A stretch of DNA of 8,079 nucleotides from DASVDK01 sp036381125 [NCBI: Thermodesulfobacteriota bacterium]. Its GTDB lineage: Bacteria; DASVDK01. Shown here in pieces: positions 2,624 through 8,017 of the stretch. The DNA lies in the NCBI GenBank assembly GCA_036381125.1, contig DASVDK010000021.1, positions 1 to 8,079 of the forward strand, written 5' to 3'. Every line of letters starts with the position of its first letter. Position 1 is the first letter of the stretch. Position numbers and translations under genes: made by a program. Below the pieces are notes generated by a model. It was not told the DNA's origin. It saw nothing but the letters and a program-made list of their open reading frames with translations, and searched no databases.

Positions 2624-3982
2624 CTAGGCGTCGAAGCGTGCCGGCTCGGCCGCCGCGCCGTCGCCCGCCTCGTAGGCGCGCGCCAGGAGCTCCACCGGGT
2701 GCACGACCGGCATCCGGAGCCCGGCCCGGGCCATCCCCTTGGCGATCTGGATGAGGCAGCCGGGGTTGCCGGTGGCCAGCACGTCGGCCTTCACCTCGCC
2801 GATCCGCGACATCTTCCGGTCGAGGATGCGCATGGAGAGGTCGGGGTGGACGACGTTGTAGACGCCGGCCGAGCCGCAGCACCAGTCGCTCTCGCGGATC
2901 TCGGCGAGGGTCACGCCCGGGATCTGTCGGAGGACCTCGCGCGGCTCCTGCCGGACCTTCTGGGCGTGCGCGAGGTGGCAGGCCTCGTGGTAGGCGACGA
3001 CGAGGTCGAGCCGGCCGAGCCGGCCCCTGAGCGGGCCGCCGGCCGCGAGCACCTCCGAGACGTCGCGCACCCGGGCCGCCACTCGCTTCGCCCGCTCCGC
3101 CCACTCGGGGTCGTGCTCGAGCAGCTCCCCCCACTCCTTCATGACGGAGCCGCAGCCCGAGACGTTCGTGACCACGTAGTCGACGTCGGCCGCCTCGAAG
3201 GCCGCCACGTCGCGCCGGGCGAGCGCCTTGCCCCGCTCGAGCTCGCCCTCGTGGACGTGGAGGGCGCCGCAGCACCCCTGCTCGCGCGGGACGACCACGT
3301 CCCACCCGTTCTCGGAGAGGACCCGGATCGTGGCGCGATTGGTTGCCTGGAAGACCTCCCGCATGACGCAGCCGGCCAGGAGCGCCACCCTCCCGCGCCG
3401 CTCCCCCTTCGCGGCCGTGAACTCCGGCAGCGGCCGACGGTCGGCCGGCGGTGGCACCTCGGGCAGGAGGGCCTCGCGCCGGGCGTTCGTCGCGCCGAAC
3501 GCCTTCACGAGCCCGGTCCTGCGGGCGAACGCCTGCAGGCCGCTGCGCTGGTAGAGGCCGATCAGCGTGACGAGCGCGCGCAGGACCCGCGGGTTGGGGA
3601 GCACGAGGCCGTAGCCGACCCAGCGTGCGAGCCGCGAGGCGAGCGGCCGCCGGTAGTGACGCTCGATCTGGCCGCGCGCCCGCTCCATGAGCGAGCCGAA
3701 CTGCACGCCCGAGGGGCAGGCGGTCTCGCAGGCGCGGCAGACGAGGCACTTGTACATGTGGTCCACGAAGCTGTCGGTGATGCCGAGCTTGCCCTCCTGG
3801 ACCTGCCGGATCAGGTAGACGCGGCCGCGCGGCGAGTCCATCTCCGTGCCCAGCTCGACGTAGGTCGGGCAGGTCGGCAGGCAGAGGCCGCAGTGGACGC
3901 AGTCGAGGATCTTCTCCCGCGAGGGCGGGTCGATCTCGTCGAAGCCCGGCCCGGCCGGCCGCGTCGTCTCGGCGATGGCCAC
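2624..3982 (-). CDS. glcF: Glycolate oxidase iron-sulfur subunit GlcF
   Basis: The iron-sulfur subunit of glycolate dehydrogenase, 452 residues, somewhat longer than E. coli GlcF. It passes electrons from the flavin subunits towards the quinone pool at the membrane. Two ferredoxin-type 4Fe-4S motifs lie near the N-terminus: C28/C31/C34 with C38, and C79/C82/C85 with C89. Two CCG (heterodisulfide-reductase-like) domains follow, marked by C205, CCG at 237-239 and C277, and by C335, CCG at 368-370 and C409. The start is a GTG that overlaps the last base of the glcE stop (TAGTG). GGGAGG at 3989-3994 lies six bases before it and fixes this choice. The same frame stays open far upstream within glcE, but that extension is antisense-type shadow without homology. 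Last gene of the operon, followed by an intrinsic terminator. A D-lactate dehydrogenase iron-sulfur subunit is the main alternative. Confidence 0.92.
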   Translation of the reverse strand: MAIAETTRPAGPGFDEIDPPSREKILDCVHCGLCLPTCPTYVELGTEMDSPRGRVYLIRQVQEGKLGITDSFVDHMYKCLVCRACETACPSGVQFGSLMERARGQIERHYRRPLASRLARWVGYGLVLPNPRVLRALVTLIGLYQRSGLQAFARRTGLVKAFGATNARREALLPEVPPPADRRPLPEFTAAKGERRGRVALLAGCVMREVFQATNRATIRVLSENGWDVVVPREQGCCGALHVHEGELERGKALARRDVAAFEAADVDYVVTNVSGCGSVMKEWGELLEHDPEWAERAKRVAARVRDVSEVLAAGGPLRGRLGRLDLVVAYHEACHLAHAQKVRQEPREVLRQIPGVTLAEIRESDWCCGSAGVYNVVHPDLSMRILDRKMSRIGEVKADVLATGNPGCLIQIAKGMARAGLRMPVVHPVELLARAYEAGDGAAAEPARFDA

Positions 3983-5367
3983 TAGATCCCTCCCACGAAG
4001 CGCCCCGGGTTCAACCGCCCGTCGGGATCGAACTGCGCCTTGAGCGCCTGCATGAGCCTGAGCGGCGGCCCCACGGGGCCCCAGACGTCGACGGCCGCCT
4101 TCACGGCCGCCGGCGCCGATTCGACCACGAGGTGACCGGCGTTCCTGCCGCCCGAGCGCGCCACCTCGCGCAGGTCGCCGAGCGCCGCGGCGAGCGCCGC
4201 CGGCTCGCCGCAGAGCGCCACGCGGGCCGAGCCGCTCCCCGCCTCGGCCGTCGCGACCACGTCGGCCAGGCCGTGCGCCGCCCGCATCGACTCGGCGGCC
4301 GCGAGGAAGGGCGGCACCGCCGTGACGACGAGCGCGGCCCTCGCGATCGCCCAGCTCCGGCCGTCGGCGGCCAGGCGCGCCGGCGCGTTGCGCACCGCCT
4401 CCCAGAAGGCGGCCTGCCGCTCGCCGTCGAGCAGCCGGTCGTGCCGCACGCCGAGCCCCGCGGCCGTGTCGCGGACGGCGACGACCTGCGAGGCGACCTC
4501 GTCGGCGATCCCGCCGAAGGCGATGGCCACGAGCACCCGGCCGTCGGGCAACGCCGAGAAGTCCGGCAGCGCGCGGACCGCCCCTCCCGAGACGATCTCC
4601 ATCGCGGTCGGCAGGAGATGGGAGTCGAGCACCCTGGCGACCAGGCTGCCGGCCACGTCGAGGCTCGGCATCTCGACCACCCAGGTCCGCTCCTCGGCGG
4701 GCCTCGGGTGGAGCTTGACCGTCACCCCGGCGATCACCGCGAGCGTCCCGAGCGAGCCGATGTAGAGCTTGTTCATGTCGTACCCGGTGACGTTCTTGAC
4801 GACCTTCGCCCCGCCCTTGGTGATCGTCCCGTCGGCGTGCACCACGCGGATGCCGATGACGAGGTCGCGCGCCGTGCCGTACCGGAGCCGCGAGGGCCCG
4901 CTCGCGTTGGCGGCGAGGACGCCGCCGAGCGTGGCGCGGTCGGCGTGCGGCGGGTCGAGGGCGAGCCACTGGCCCGCCCGCCCGAGGTGGGCGTTCGCGT
5001 CGGCCAGGCGGATGCCGGCCTCGAACGTCGCCGTGAGGTCGGCCGGCTCGTGCTCCACCACCCGGTTCATCCGCTCGACGCTCGCCACGAGGTCGACCCG
5101 CGCGGGCGTCGCGCCGAGCGACTGCTTCGTGCCGCCGCCCCAGGGGGCCACGACGGCCCCGAGCTCGGTCGCGACCCGCAGGAGGGCCGACAGCTCCTCG
5201 ATCGTCCCCGGCCGTGCCACCACGGCCGGCAGGACGCCGTCGACGGCGTACCGGGGCCGATCGGCCCGCGGCGCCACCGCGTCGCGGCCGAGGACCTCGG
5301 CCACGCGTGCCTCGAGGCGCGCCGGATCGGGCGCCTGCGTCTCGGGTCGAGCCGCTGCCGTGGACAT
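3982..5367 (-). CDS. glcE: Glycolate oxidase FAD-binding subunit GlcE
   Basis: The second flavin-binding subunit of glycolate dehydrogenase, 461 residues, longer than E. coli GlcE (about 350). The FAD-binding (PCMH/FAD_binding_4) fold is visible. TIEELSALLRVATELGAVVAPWGGGTK lies at about residues 55-81. TLGGVLAANASGPSRLRYGTARDLVIG lies at about 146-172. KNVTGYDMNKLYIGSLGTL lies at 191-209. The protein ends with DPDGRLNPGRF, the GlcD/GlcE-type C-terminal signature. The ATG lies 11 bases after the glcD stop; its SD GAGGAG (5375-5380) shares bases with that TGA, so translation is probably coupled. Its stop overlaps the GTG of glcF by one base. Subunit identity is confident from the fold and the D-E-F order. 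Confidence 0.9.
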   Translation of the reverse strand: MSTAAARPETQAPDPARLEARVAEVLGRDAVAPRADRPRYAVDGVLPAVVARPGTIEELSALLRVATELGAVVAPWGGGTKQSLGATPARVDLVASVERMNRVVEHEPADLTATFEAGIRLADANAHLGRAGQWLALDPPHADRATLGGVLAANASGPSRLRYGTARDLVIGIRVVHADGTITKGGAKVVKNVTGYDMNKLYIGSLGTLAVIAGVTVKLHPRPAEERTWVVEMPSLDVAGSLVARVLDSHLLPTAMEIVSGGAVRALPDFSALPDGRVLVAIAFGGIADEVASQVVAVRDTAAGLGVRHDRLLDGERQAAFWEAVRNAPARLAADGRSWAIARAALVVTAVPPFLAAAESMRAAHGLADVVATAEAGSGSARVALCGEPAALAAALGDLREVARSGGRNAGHLVVESAPAAVKAAVDVWGPVGPPLRLMQALKAQFDPDGRLNPGRFVGGI

Positions 5368-5374
5368 GGGATCG

Positions 5375-5380
5375 CTCCTC
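5375..5380 (-). promoter_or_regulatory. Ribosome binding site of glcE inside the glcD stop
   Basis: GAGGAG on the minus strand, seven bases before the glcE ATG; its first two bases are also the last two of the glcD TGA. This layout indicates translational coupling and sets the glcE start at 5367. Confidence 0.75.
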
Positions 5381-6836
5381 AGAACCGCTGGGCCAGGCCG
5401 GCCGCCTCGATCGGGTGCGGCGCGCGGTGGGACGAGGCCACCTCGCCGCAGGCGCGCGAGGTGGGGAAGATCTTCCCCGGGTTCATGCGGCCGTCCGGGT
5501 TGAAGACCGCCCTCAGCTTGCGCATGGCGTCGAGATCGGCCTCGTCGAACATGAGCGGCATGAAGTCCATCTTCTCGATGCCGACGCCGTGCTCGCCGGT
5601 GATGCTGCCCCCCGCCTCGATGCAGGCGCGCATCATGTCGGCCCCGGCGGCAACGGCCCGCTCGAGCTGGCCCGGCTGGCTGTTGTCGTAGAGGACGAGC
5701 GGGTGGAGGTTGCCGTCGCCGGCGTGGAAGACGTTGGCCACCTTGAGCCCCTGTCGCGCGGCCGCCTCCTCGACGACGCGCAGGATCGGCAGGAGCCGGG
5801 TCCGCGGGATCACGGCGTCCTGCACGTAGTAGTCGGGGCTGATGCGCCCCATCGCGCCGAAGGCGTTCTTGCGCCCCTTCCAGAGGAGGGCCCGCTCCGC
5901 CTCGTCCCGCGCGACCCGGATCTCGCGGACGCGGCAGTCGCGCAGGACCCGCTCGACGACTGCCATCTGCGCGTCGAGTCCGGCGGCGAGCCCGTCGAGC
6001 TCGACGAGGAGCACCGCGCCGGCGTCGGTCGGGTAACCGGCGTTCACCGCCGCCTCCACCGCCTGGATGGAGAGGTTGTCCATCATCTCGATGGCGGCCG
6101 GGATGATGCCGGCGGCGATGATCCCCGAGACGGCGCGCGAGCCGTCGTCCATCTCGTCGAACACGGCCAGCACCGTCTTCACCGCCTGGGGCTTCTTCAG
6201 GATGCGGACCTCCACCTCGACCACCACGCCGAAGGTCCCCTCGGACCCCACGAACGCGCCGACCAGGTCGTAGCCGAGCGCGTCGCTCGCCCGGCCGCCA
6301 AGGTGGAGGCGCTCGCCGTCCGGCAGGACCACGTCGAGGCCCAGGACGTGGTTCGTCGTGACCCCGTACTTGAGGCAGTGGGGGCCGCCCGAGTTCTCGG
6401 CGACGTTGCCCCCGATCGTGCAGGCCTTCTGCGAGGCGGGGTCGGGCGCGTAGTAGTAGCCGTACGGGGCGAGCGCCTCCGAGAGCCAGAGGTTCACGAC
6501 GCCCGGCTGGACGACGGCGCGCTGGTTGGGGATGTCGATCTCCACGATGGACATCATGCGCGAGAGGCCGATCATGATGCCCCCCTCGACCGGCAGGCAG
6601 CCGCCGGAGAGCCCGGTGCCGGCGCCGCGGGGGATGAAGACGATCCCCTCCTCCTTGCAGAGGCGCACGACCGCCTCGACCTCCTCGCCGGTCCTCGGCA
6701 GCACGACGAGGTCTGGCGGGTGTTTGAAGCCGGTGAGGCCGTCGCACTCGTAGGCCGCAAGCTCGTCCGGGTCGACGATGACGGCGTCCGGCCCCACGAT
6801 GGCGCCGAGCCGGCCGGCGATGCGCCGCACGTCCAT
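5379..6836 (-). CDS. glcD: Glycolate oxidase subunit GlcD, FAD-linked
   Basis: The catalytic flavoprotein of glycolate dehydrogenase, 485 residues, close to E. coli GlcD (499). It oxidises glycolate to glyoxylate, and related enzymes oxidise D-lactate. N-terminal FAD-binding domain: PRGAGTGLSGG at 69-79, and PDPASQKACTIGGNVAENSGG-type block at 131-151. C-terminal FAD-oxidase domain: HAGDGNLHP at 371-379, GEHGVG at 414-419 and NPDGRMNPGK at 446-455. The two histidine motifs are those expected at the substrate and metal site of the family. About 25 residues after NPGK form an unconserved tail. The ATG is four bases after the stop of the ArsC-like gene, with AAGGGG (6844-6849) seven bases upstream. 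It is followed at once by glcE. All motifs are intact and I see no damage. Confidence 0.93.
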   Translation of the reverse strand: MDVRRIAGRLGAIVGPDAVIVDPDELAAYECDGLTGFKHPPDLVVLPRTGEEVEAVVRLCKEEGIVFIPRGAGTGLSGGCLPVEGGIMIGLSRMMSIVEIDIPNQRAVVQPGVVNLWLSEALAPYGYYYAPDPASQKACTIGGNVAENSGGPHCLKYGVTTNHVLGLDVVLPDGERLHLGGRASDALGYDLVGAFVGSEGTFGVVVEVEVRILKKPQAVKTVLAVFDEMDDGSRAVSGIIAAGIIPAAIEMMDNLSIQAVEAAVNAGYPTDAGAVLLVELDGLAAGLDAQMAVVERVLRDCRVREIRVARDEAERALLWKGRKNAFGAMGRISPDYYVQDAVIPRTRLLPILRVVEEAAARQGLKVANVFHAGDGNLHPLVLYDNSQPGQLERAVAAGADMMRACIEAGGSITGEHGVGIEKMDFMPLMFDEADLDAMRKLRAVFNPDGRMNPGKIFPTSRACGEVASSHRAPHPIEAAGLAQRF

Positions 6837-6840
6837 GACG

Positions 6841-7191
6841 TTACCCCTTCTTCTTCTCGAAGAGCGCCGCGTAGCGGGCCCGATCGAAGCCGACGATCAC
6901 CTCGCGGCCGGTGTCGAGGATGGGGCGGCGCACGAGCCGCGGCTCCTTCGCCATGAGCGCCATCGTCCTCGCCGTGACCGGCGCGTCCGGGTCGATGCCG
7001 TGCGTCTTGATCTCCGCCGTACGGCGCGACAGGAGGTCCCCGTCGACGACGCGCGCGGAAAGGTCCTTGATCTCCTCGAGCGTGAGCGGCGCCTTGAAGA
7101 GGTCCCGCACCTCGATGTCGGCCCTGGCCTGCGAAAGGAACTCCTTCGCGTTGCGGCAGCCGGTTCAGCCCGGCTTCCAGTAGAAGGTCAT
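6841..7191 (-). CDS. Candidate selenoprotein: ArsC/Spx-family oxidoreductase with in-frame TGA
   Basis: A thioredoxin-fold protein of 116 residues, the normal length of the ArsC/YffB/Spx family. Seen directly: from the ATG at 7191 the frame reads MTFYWKPG, then TGA (7165-7167), then TGCRNAKEFL, and stays open to TAA at 6841. Family members have a Cys at the TGA position (KP-x-C-T-x-C-R), so reading TGA as selenocysteine gives a U-x-x-C active site. The family-typical RRPIL segment is at 88-92, near the expected cis-proline, followed by VIVGFD (99-103). The substrate is unknown; an arsenate reductase name would be by family only. GGGAGGGGAG (7203-7212) precedes it. An in-frame GTG at 7200 is an alternative start, three residues longer and with better SD spacing. 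It ends four bases before glcD and so heads the glc operon. Conventional calling would truncate it to a start near 7110, without the active site. A decayed gene or sequence error are the alternatives, less likely given the exact position and the downstream hairpin. Confidence 0.82.
7131..7149 (-). promoter_or_regulatory. Candidate bacterial SECIS hairpin
   Basis: On the minus strand GCG-AAGG pairs with CCTT-CGC around an AGTT loop, with one bulged U on the 3' side. The fold can also be drawn with AAGGA pairing TCCTT. The loop starts 22 bases after the TGA, within the range known for bacterial SECIS elements. It contains GU, as the E. coli fdhF element does (there with a bulged U on the 5' side). 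SelB recognition of this exact loop is inferred, not shown. Confidence 0.6.
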
Positions 7192-7202
7192 GCGCGCCAC
7201 GG

Positions 7203-7212
7203 CTCCCCTCCC
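7203..7212 (-). promoter_or_regulatory. Ribosome binding site of the ArsC-like selenoprotein gene
   Basis: Reads GGGAGGGGAG on the minus strand. GGGAGG is six bases before the GTG at 7200; GGGGAG is eleven bases before the ATG at 7191. It supports a start upstream of the TGA, which an annotation beginning after the TGA would leave unexplained. Confidence 0.65.
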
Positions 7213-7225
7213 ACCGTTGTCGAGG

Positions 7226-7231
7226 TATAGT
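7226..7231 (+). promoter_or_regulatory. -10 element of the gntR promoter
   Basis: TATAGT, a 5 of 6 match to the sigma70 -10 hexamer in a GC-rich region. No good -35 is seen upstream. Transcription would begin near 7238, inside the inverted repeat at 7234-7253, which fits autorepression by the GntR protein. Confidence 0.45.
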
Positions 7232-7233
7232 GC

Positions 7234-7253
7234 GACATCAGACGTCAGATGTC
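7234..7253. promoter_or_regulatory. Inverted-repeat operator candidate between the divergent genes
   Basis: GACATC and GATGTC are 6-base inverted arms placed symmetrically around a central GACGTC palindrome, with one A on each side of the centre. The two-fold symmetry is near perfect over 20 bases. It overlaps the predicted transcription starts of both the glc operon and the regulator gene. FadR-family GntR proteins bind short palindromes in this kind of position, so it is the likely site of the adjacent regulator. It does not match the usual GT-N3-AC core exactly. Confidence 0.6.
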
Positions 7254-7256
7254 TCA

Positions 7257-7291: not shown

Positions 7292-8017
7292 ATGGTGTCG
7301 CGCAGACCGCTGCCCGAGGAGGTGGCCGGGATCCTCGCCGAAGAGATCCGGACGGGACGTCTCCCGGCCGGCGCCTTCCTGCCGGCCGAGCCGCGGCTCA
7401 TCGAGCGTTTCGGCGTGAGCCGGCCGGTCGTGCGCGAGGCGACCCGCATCCTCGCCGCGCGCGGCCTGGTGGAGGTGCGCCGCGGCGTCGGGGTCGTGGT
7501 GCGCGACGCGCCCGATCCGAACCTCGGCGACGCGCTCGCCGCGCGCATCCGCAGCGATGCCGGCGTCCTGCGCGACATCTGGGACGTGCGGATGATGCTC
7601 GAGCCGGCCGTGGCCGCGGCCGCCGCCGAGCGGGCCACTGCCGAGGAGGTCGACGCCATCGCCCGTGCGGCGGAGGCGCTCGAGGCGGCCTCCGACCCCG
7701 TGGGGGCGGACCTGGCCTTCCACGAGGCGGTCATGCGGGCGGCCCACAACGGCGTCGTGGCGCTCATCCTCGCCCCGCTCGGCGACCTGCTGCGCGCCGA
7801 GCGGGCGGCGACCCTCCGCATGGGCCTCGACGCGGCGTCTCGCGGCCACCGGCGGGTCGCCGCCGCCATCGCCGCCCGCGACGCCGCCGCCGCCCGCGCC
7901 GCCATGGCGGAGCACCTCGTCGAGGCCCGTCGAGGACTCGAGCGCGCGCTGGCCGCTCCGGAGCGCGAGCCGGTCGCTGCAACGGATGCTCCAGGCACCG
8001 GACGGCACCAGGGGTGA
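7292..8017 (+). CDS. FadR-type GntR regulator with FCD domain, likely GlcC/LldR-like
   Basis: A ligand-responsive transcription factor of 241 residues. Residues 7-71 are the GntR winged helix (GRLPAG, FGVSRPVVREATRILAARGLVE, RRGVGVVV). Residues about 90-220 are the all-helical FCD domain. D140, H144, H186 and H208 have the spacing of the metal-binding D-x3-H, H-x21-H set known in FCD regulators such as LldR, so it probably binds a metal and a carboxylate such as glycolate or lactate. It is divergent from glcDEF, as glcC is in E. coli, and the operator candidate at 7234-7253 lies between. AAGGAG (7284-7289) is only two bases before the ATG at 7292; the adjacent GTG at 7295, five bases away, may be the true start. 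The frame is open further upstream to 7190, but that would run through the operator and both promoters. Whether it represses or activates is not shown. Confidence 0.88.
   Translation: MVSRRPLPEEVAGILAEEIRTGRLPAGAFLPAEPRLIERFGVSRPVVREATRILAARGLVEVRRGVGVVVRDAPDPNLGDALAARIRSDAGVLRDIWDVRMMLEPAVAAAAAERATAEEVDAIARAAEALEAASDPVGADLAFHEAVMRAAHNGVVALILAPLGDLLRAERAATLRMGLDAASRGHRRVAAAIAARDAAAARAAMAEHLVEARRGLERALAAPEREPVAATDAPGTGRHQG

What the first reader, a model, noticed from the sequence alone, without database searches (positions are those of the whole stretch)
7165..7167. In-frame TGA at the catalytic cysteine: an ArsC/Spx-family selenoprotein
The codon at position 9 of the minus-strand gene 6841-7191 is TGA. 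The flanking residues (WKPG, then TGCRNAKEFL) align with the KP-x-C-T-x-C-R active site of this family, so the stop falls exactly on the nucleophilic Cys and gives UxxC. The rest of the gene is intact to a normal C-terminus, a good ribosome binding site precedes the full-length start, and a SECIS-like hairpin follows. UxxC at a Cys position is the standard form of thiol-oxidoreductase selenoproteins. As I recall, ArsC-like selenoproteins have been proposed from metagenomes, so the family may not be new, but it is little known and routinely misannotated as a truncated gene.
Basis: partly seen in the sequence, partly recalled or inferred. Interest (0 to 1): 0.9.

Follow-up and report, generated by a model that had tools for sequence, protein, structure and literature searches.

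The report
ArsC/Spx-like selenoprotein in glycolate-oxidase operon
A small bacterial redox gene that looks broken by a stop codon is very probably read through with the rare amino acid selenocysteine at its active site; this kind of protein is already known, but this member sits at the head of a gene cluster for oxidising glycolate- or lactate-like acids, which is a new clue to its job.

Summary
In detail: minus-strand gene 6841-7191 has one in-frame TGA (7167-7165), on the codon where the ArsC/Spx family has its nucleophilic Cys, giving UxxC. It is very unlikely to be an error or a decayed gene: 38 relatives (about 28-48% identical) carry TGA at the same codon and 28 carry TGC/TGT. A bacterial SECIS-type hairpin follows in 33 of 38 TGA genes tested and in 0 of 28 Cys genes; the window's has 7 bp and loop AGUUC, 22 nt downstream. 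In Acidobacteriota genomes TGA goes with selB (17 of 18, against 4 of 28 with Cys). The window's own genome is not held, so its Sec machinery is untested. ArsC-like selenoproteins are in print since 2006-2008: a known kind, though this member scores 29.5 bits against the cut-off of 85 of NCBI's named UxxC model. New here: in the window and in three related Methylomirabilota genomes the gene lies in a glcDEF 2-hydroxyacid-oxidase cluster (with lut genes and trxB in the three), but in none of 20 other homolog neighbourhoods checked. I read it as a thioredoxin-recycled selenol oxidoreductase serving 2-hydroxyacid oxidation; that last step is inference.

The parts
6841..7191 (-). ArsC/Spx-like selenoprotein gene (116 aa from ATG 7191; 119 aa if the GTG at 7200 is the start), stop TAA
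   Evidence: Pfam ArsC 44.1 bits over cut-off 24; GC3 0.95 in frame
7165..7167 (-). TGA, predicted selenocysteine codon, at the first (nucleophilic) Cys of the CxxC motif
   Evidence: TGA at the same codon in 38 relatives, TGC/TGT in 28
7131..7149 (-). bacterial SECIS-type hairpin inside the coding region: stem GCGAAGG/CUUUCGC, loop AGUUC (7138-7142), 22 nt after the UGA
   Evidence: same kind in 30 of 35 TGA genes, 0 of 28 Cys genes
7156..7158 (-). TGC, resolving Cys (Cys12) of UxxC (role inferred)
   Evidence: invariant in the 13-sequence alignment
7203..7212 (-). GGGAGGGGAG, probable ribosome-binding sequence upstream of GTG 7200
   Evidence: read
7231..7256 (.). 13+13-nt imperfect palindrome between the divergent genes, candidate operator of the regulator
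   Evidence: 85% complementary, 0 nt between the arms; function inferred
7292..8017 (+). GntR/FCD-family regulator (nearest NCBIfam models NanR, LldR, GlcC), divergent from arsC; start codon my choice among candidates
   Evidence: Pfam GntR and FCD; NCBIfam NanR 104.4, LldR 94.1, GlcC 77 bits, all below cut-off; start candidates
5379..6836 (-). GlcD-type FAD-linked 2-hydroxyacid oxidase subunit; starts 4 bases after the arsC stop
   Evidence: glcD model 511.6 bits, cut-off 567.9
3982..5367 (-). GlcE-type FAD-binding subunit (start codon my choice)
   Evidence: Pfam FAD_binding_4 and FAD-oxidase_C on 3982-5415; long tblastn pieces 40-52% identical to the GlcE that follows GlcD in relatives
2624..3982 (-). 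GlcF-type iron-sulfur subunit (start codon my choice)
   Evidence: Pfam CCG and Fer4 on the frame 2624-4969; GlcF model 317.3 bits, cut-off 333

Best explanation
The gene encodes a full-length ArsC/Spx-family thiol oxidoreductase whose catalytic residue is selenocysteine. Ribosomes reading the in-frame UGA insert Sec through SelB, tRNA-Sec and the hairpin that starts 15 nt downstream inside the coding sequence (supported by comparison, not shown for this organism). The Sec selenolate (residue 9) attacks an oxidised substrate, Cys12 resolves the adduct as a selenenylsulfide, and thioredoxin/thioredoxin reductase regenerates it (inferred from the UxxC motif and from trxB close to the homolog in three genomes). 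Its place at the head of a glcDEF cluster beside a divergent GntR/FCD regulator suggests that it serves 2-hydroxyacid (glycolate or lactate) oxidation, for example by reducing oxidised thiols or peroxides produced there (inference). By curated models it is not a canonical arsenate reductase. The confidence below is for Sec decoding; I give the 2-hydroxyacid role about 0.35.
For: UGA on the active-site codon of an otherwise intact, family-matching gene. TGA at the same codon in 38 relatives and Cys in 28. Hairpin of at least 6 bp with a GU loop in 30 of 35 TGA genes, plus 3 of 3 further, against 0 of 28 Cys genes and 92 of 2230 codons of the window's other genes. In 15 distinct genes whose best stem has the same centre, six core pairs form in 15 of 15, with exchanges G-C/A-T, A-T/C-G and G-C/C-G; 0 of 2000 shuffles reach the paired count (see against). 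selB over cut-off in 17 of 18 Acidobacteriota genomes with TGA against 4 of 28 with Cys, Fisher p 5e-8; G294 is one more TGA genome with selB. selB in 16 of 16 TGA-bearing Methylomirabilota genomes and in G720, G684 and G745. Strong tRNA-Sec in G070, G071, G094, G720, G684 and G745. glcDEF linkage in the window and in the 3 Methylomirabilota genomes with the most similar gene, with trxB close by in those three.
Against: The window's own genome is not held, so selA, selB, selC and selD are untested there. The best relatives are only 41-48% identical. The hairpin rule was set after seeing the sequences; a permissive energy measure did not separate Sec from Cys genes (p 0.42). Five of 35 TGA genes lack the strict hairpin, three of them even at 5 bp. 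All 28 Cys genes are from Acidobacteriota and 20 of them form one clade, so they are not 28 independent controls. The 15 genes were picked by their best stem centre, which favours pairing there, and the number of pair types alone was not unusual (1124 of 2000 shuffles). Sec/Cys and selB are clustered by descent: only 3 independent pairs, too few for a test. The selB contrast says little in Methylomirabilota, where 84 of 95 genomes have it. One relative (G380) has the TGA plus a nearby TAG and no selB over cut-off, though it has tRNA-Sec at 61.7 bits. No protein evidence. The glc link rests on two lineages, and a tblastn of the window's ArsC found none beside glcD in the 80 GlcD loci first fetched, many of them short.
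Confidence: 0.93

Rival explanations
1. The TGA is a true stop: the gene is a decayed ArsC/Spx pseudogene, or is translated only from an internal start (89-aa ORF from GTG 7110).
For: Under table 11 the frame stops there, and an ORF from GTG 7110 is open. One relative, G380, has a further TAG and no selB over cut-off.
Against: The stop falls on the active-site codon and nowhere else; 38 relatives share it; the rest of the gene is intact with GC3 0.95; the strict hairpin was found in TGA genes and in none of the 28 Cys genes. An 89-aa product would lack the UxxC motif.
Confidence: 0.03
2. Sequencing or assembly error: the codon is really TGC or TGT.
For: A single base would do it, and the window may come from a metagenome (its source is not told).
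Against: The same TGA in assemblies of 38 other genomes, with a hairpin found in none of 28 Cys genes but present here.
Confidence: 0.02
3. UGA is decoded as another amino acid (Trp or Gly recoding, or a suppressor), not Sec.
For: The tools cannot see the amino acid.
Against: TGA is the ordinary stop of GlcD and of the regulator, and TGG is used in the same genes. In the 28 relatives without TGA the residue is Cys, and selB/tRNA-Sec go with TGA.
Confidence: 0.01
4. The protein is a selenocysteine form of true arsenate reductase and its role is arsenic detoxification (compatible with Sec decoding).
For: It belongs to the ArsC Pfam family.
Against: 28.9 bits against the arsC model's cut-off of 106; Spx-type models score higher. 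The neighbours scanned are a regulator, 2-hydroxyacid oxidase subunits, PcnB and two unmatched ORFs, with no ars gene among them.
Confidence: 0.12
5. It is an Spx-like regulator that binds RNA polymerase and senses oxidants through its UxxC switch (compatible with Sec decoding).
For: Best solved-structure matches are Spx; 57.9 bits on the Spx/MgsR model; its relative L086 passes that model's cut-off.
Against: The window protein is below that cut-off of 75. It lies in a glc cluster next to a conventional regulator. RNA-polymerase-binding residues were not tested.
Confidence: 0.12

Closest known systems
Arsenate reductase-like UxxC selenoprotein ('Arsenate reductase 2', cd03032, in 2008; listed under NCBIfam NF041106 ArsC_rel_Se_1 in 2026)
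   Same: Sec replaces the first active-site Cys of an ArsC-family protein, motif UxxC, with Cys homologs (PMC2398784, PMC9312934, PMC13188914: passages seen).
   Different: The window protein scores 29.5 bits against the NF041106 cut-off of 85. Of ten relatives scanned at E 1e-10, only L089 (YHRPGUKGC type) hits that model, at 138 bits; at E 1e-3, 12 of the 13 members of alignment A1 do, so they are distant kin. The example proteins of those papers were not available for comparison.
Arsenate reductase UxxS selenoprotein ('ArsC 1'; TIGR00014 in 2026)
   Same: Sec in an ArsC-family protein (PMC2398784, PMC13188914: passages seen).
   Different: UxxS, not UxxC; the window protein scores 28.9 on TIGR00014, cut-off 106. 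L175 (G176, 91.2 bits, KPTUSTC) is nearer to that model.
Spx/MgsR (TIGR01617) CxxC regulators
   Same: Same family and CxxC position; best solved-structure match (3gfk, E 1.7e-10).
   Different: Below the TIGR01617 cut-off (57.9 against 75.05); Sec in place of Cys; glc-cluster context.
ArsC-like and 'distant ArsC homolog' selenoproteins of Desulfotalea and Desulfuromonas (PMC1794560)
   Same: Earliest genome-derived ArsC-like selenoproteins in the papers I saw (table passages).
   Different: Sequences not available here, so the relationship was not tested.

Membership tests
Bacterial selenoproteins | In-frame UGA where homologs have Cys, with conservation on both sides | tested here: met
Bacterial selenoproteins | bSECIS hairpin: 4-16 bp stem, 3-9 nt loop, G in the first two loop positions, 16-37 nt from the UGA, MFE at most -7.5 kcal/mol (criteria from the Fig. 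2 legend of PMC13188914, passage seen) | tested here: met
   7 bp, loop AGUUC, 22 nt; -9.7 kcal/mol for 29 nt
Bacterial selenoproteins | Sec machinery (selA, selB, selC, selD) in the same genome | not testable with these tools
   genome not held; selB and selC looked for in relatives only; selA and selD not searched in relatives
Bacterial selenoproteins | Selenium shown in the protein | not testable with these tools
   needs mass spectrometry or 75Se
ArsC family (Pfam PF03960) | Gathering score 24 bits | tested here: met
   44.1 bits
ArsC_rel_Se_1 (NF041106) | Curated cut-off 85 bits | tested here: not met
   29.5 bits
Spx/MgsR (TIGR01617) | Curated cut-off 75.05 bits | tested here: not met
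   57.9 bits; relative L086 reaches 83.4
Glutaredoxin-dependent arsenate reductase (TIGR00014) | Curated cut-off 106.05 bits | tested here: not met
   28.9 bits
Glutaredoxin-dependent arsenate reductase (TIGR00014) | Arsenate reduction | not testable with these tools
   needs an enzyme assay

The most novel reading that the evidence does not exclude
The window gene and the three Methylomirabilota genes (G070, G071, G094) define a separate ArsC/Spx-like selenoprotein subfamily, outside NCBI's named selenoprotein models, that is a dedicated component of glycolate/lactate (GlcDEF/LutABC) oxidation: a selenol redox partner or repair enzyme of these oxidases, driven by thioredoxin reductase. The one search for such a link listed a single paper, on another selenoprotein by its title and abstract.
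Probability: 0.2. Interest if true: 0.6.

Novelty: new member of a known kind. Interest (0 to 1): 0.42.

Why it matters
It indicates that Sec-containing ArsC/Spx-like proteins extend beyond NCBI's named UxxC model, in Acidobacteriota, Methylomirabilota and a third phylum. It also gives a functional lead (2-hydroxyacid oxidation, thioredoxin reductase) for a kind of selenoprotein whose functions a 2026 review (PMC13188914, passage seen) calls largely uncharacterised. A gene caller using table 11 would cut such a gene at its active site.

Tried and rejected
Scans of genome contigs and viral contigs with the ArsC protein itself found no relative; the second genome scan was therefore spent on GlcD, in whose 80 loci a tblastn found no ArsC homolog at E 0.01. 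A permissive hairpin-energy measure did not separate Sec from Cys genes (means -13.2 and -12.9, p 0.42); I replaced it by a stricter definition (uninterrupted stem, GU in a small loop), chosen after seeing the sequences. An AlphaFold model from the single sequence was useless (mean pLDDT 40.8) and was not searched. Gemmatimonadota gave no match at 1e-12 in 249 genomes. The class of G720 gave no further match at 1e-12 in 52 genomes. The independent-pairs test had too few pairs. Plasmid records gave 14 matches under 60% identity, the eight listed being Spx-type or ArsC/Spx/MgsR genes or unannotated; not used further. The ARAGORN 'tRNA-Ala' at 7780-7877 lies inside the regulator gene and has no Rfam support: rejected.

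Rows dropped before counts: L169 (G231) because its N-terminus is missing; L083 and L084 as distant matches without the motif; L085, L101 and L102 (matches reported without an internal stop) never entered the script; L105 (G380) left out of the tree but kept in the TGA, hairpin and selB counts. G294 (L160) was missed in the script and checked, so it is in the count of 39 TGA genes (window included) but not in the 38 tested for a hairpin or the 46 of the selB table. L089 and L090 are identical proteins from two genomes and count as two.

Full report
What is there. On the minus strand, ATG 7191 to TAA 6841 is open except for TGA at 7167-7165, codon 9. Read through, the 116-aa protein matches Pfam ArsC (44.1 bits, cut-off 24) and Glutaredoxin (30.6, cut-off 22.9), and Spx in the Protein Data Bank over residues 2-106 (E 1.7e-10), with codon 9 aligned to the first Cys of the CxxC. 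Third-position GC is 0.95 in this frame. No other in-frame TGA occurs in the six other minus-strand frames checked, and TGA ends GlcD and the regulator. A purine-rich sequence suits a GTG at 7200 better than the ATG at 7191 as start (inference).

Relatives. Scans with the short protein found nothing, so I went through GlcD loci to genome handles. The ArsC protein then matched, at E 1e-6 or better, 15 of 95 genomes of the phylum of G001, in each case with TGA at the active site of the best match, three of them at 43-48% identity. At 1e-8 it matched 48 of 297 genomes of the phylum of G009, and at 1e-12 3 of 282 genomes of the phylum of G004, all three with TGA. I call the first two Methylomirabilota and Acidobacteriota from the record titles of the starting loci ('Rokuibacteriota', 'Acidobacteria'; that Rokubacteria belong to Methylomirabilota is recalled); no call checked this. 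In all, 39 genes including the window have TGA and 28, all from Acidobacteriota, have TGC/TGT at this codon (exclusions in Tried and rejected). Apart from G380, with a TAG soon after the TGA, the TGA genes run to a normal end. On a tree of 66 rows the Sec/Cys states need 4 changes; the window's place is unresolved, nearest by path to the three Methylomirabilota genes and G720.

Recoding signal. A 2026 review gives the bacterial SECIS rule: 4-16 bp, 3-9 nt loop, G in the first two loop positions, 16-37 nt from the UGA, at most -7.5 kcal/mol (PMC13188914, figure legend passage). The window hairpin meets it: 7 bp, AGUUC, 22 nt, -9.7 kcal/mol for 29 nt. By a stricter rule (uninterrupted stem of at least 6 bp, loop of 3-7 nt starting with G or NG and holding GU) 30 of 35 TGA genes have it against 0 of 28 Cys genes, 92 of 2230 codons of the window's other genes and 230 of 8908 flank positions. 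The rule was set after looking at the sequences; the Cys genes are a control from the same family, though 20 of the 28 are one clade. Three further TGA genes also have it. Of 38 TGA genes, 17 have their best stem at the window's centre; among their 15 distinct sequences six core pairs form in 15 of 15, including G-C/A-T, A-T/C-G and G-C/C-G exchanges. None of 2000 column shuffles reaches the paired count, but the set was chosen by its stem, relatedness is not controlled, and the number of pair types alone is not unusual (1124 of 2000). A permissive energy measure showed no difference between Sec and Cys genes.

Machinery. SelB (TIGR00475 over cut-off) is in 17 of 18 Acidobacteriota genomes whose gene has TGA and in 4 of 28 whose gene has Cys (p 5e-8; 46 of the 48 matching genomes). 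G294, with TGA, has selB too; G231 has selB but a truncated gene. The exception G380 has a 61.7-bit tRNA-Sec, so its assembly may simply lack selB. Descent inflates this test: only three independent pairs exist. In Methylomirabilota all 16 TGA genomes have selB (G001 added), but so do 84 of 95 overall. tRNA-Sec of 66 bits or more is present in G070, G071, G094, G720, G684 and G745. None of the 24 Cys genomes without selB has a listed match above 50 bits, but four selB-bearing TGA genomes (G356, G318, G333, G398) also show only 47-51 bits, and at Rfam's own threshold of 47 bits 37 of 54 genomes pass, Cys genomes without selB among them; so selC is the weaker marker. selA and selD were not searched in relatives. 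The window's own genome is not held.

Neighbourhood. The window reads: GntR/FCD regulator (divergent, +), 26-bp palindrome, arsC(TGA), glcD, glcE, glcF, two small ORFs without a Pfam match, pcnB. In G070, G071 and G094, which carry the most similar TGA genes, the order is 2-oxoacid:acceptor oxidoreductase, glcD, glcE, glcF, a lutA-like gene, lutB (over cut-off), a lutC-like gene (LUD domain), arsC(TGA), HAD hydrolase, thioredoxin reductase (over cut-off) (models run on G070 only, the other two by tblastn). None of 17 Acidobacteriota regions of 9.5-17 kb or 3 others has glcDEF hits. In the 13 Methylomirabilota genomes with the other type of TGA gene (YHRPGU/YHRKGU-like; only L089 of these was scored against NF041106), the listed GlcD hits are on other contigs or 2.4 Mb away. 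The three genomes are related, so this is two lineages. The reverse is not true: the GlcD loci fetched have no detectable arsC beside glcD.

How it most likely works. Supported by comparison: UGA at the nucleophile position, the hairpin, co-occurrence with SelB. Inferred: Sec9 as nucleophile, Cys12 resolving, recycling by thioredoxin, service to 2-hydroxyacid oxidation. The substrate is unknown; disulfides or peroxides are my first guess, arsenate less likely since the arsC model scores 28.9 against 106.

What is known. 'ArsC-like' and 'distant ArsC homolog' selenoproteins appear in tables of PMC1794560 (2006). PMC2398784 (2008) lists Arsenate reductase 1 (UxxS, 77 Sec sequences) and 2 (cd03032, UxxC, 42). 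PMC9312934 and PMC13188914 list both, the latter assigning the UxxC form to NF041106. I saw passages and tables, not whole papers. The window protein scores 29.5 against the NF041106 cut-off of 85, while L089 of the YHRPGUKGC type scores 138; so the window gene is either the cd03032 type of 2008 or an unlisted subgroup, which I could not decide. Searches for selenoproteins with ArsC and arsenate reductase, Acidobacteria plus Rokubacteria, Spx/ArsC, Methylomirabilota and glycolate oxidase listed no paper whose title or abstract start reports this subgroup or its operon; beyond the four papers above and one passage search on SECIS (PMC4607533) I saw listings only.

Verdict. A well-supported selenoprotein prediction of a known kind, with a new and testable operon link.

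Noticed in passing
window 7231-7256: 13+13-nt imperfect palindrome between the divergent regulator and arsC-glcDEF, a likely operator.
   Followed up: partly
L175 (G176): An Acidobacteriota ArsC nearest to TIGR00014 (91.2 bits, cut-off 106) with TGA at the active site, motif KPTUSTC (UxxC, not the published UxxS), placed among Cys relatives on the tree: perhaps a separate Cys-to-Sec change.
   Followed up: partly
L105 (G380:C2:19784-20107): TGA-bearing arsC with an extra in-frame TAG a few codons later, in a 2.5-Mb assembly with tRNA-Sec but no selB over cut-off: decaying gene, assembly error or incomplete genome.
   Followed up: partly
L144 10869-13018: arsC(TGA), a HAD hydrolase and thioredoxin reductase follow one another downstream of glcDEF and lut genes; same order in L142 and L143.
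   Followed up: yes
window 7780-7877: ARAGORN calls a 98-nt tRNA-Ala (cgc) inside the regulator gene; Rfam finds nothing at gathering thresholds, so probably false.
   Followed up: yes
G015:C224:20043-21440 and G016:C50:20926-22326: Two GlcD homologs are reported with one internal TGA each; not examined.
   Followed up: no
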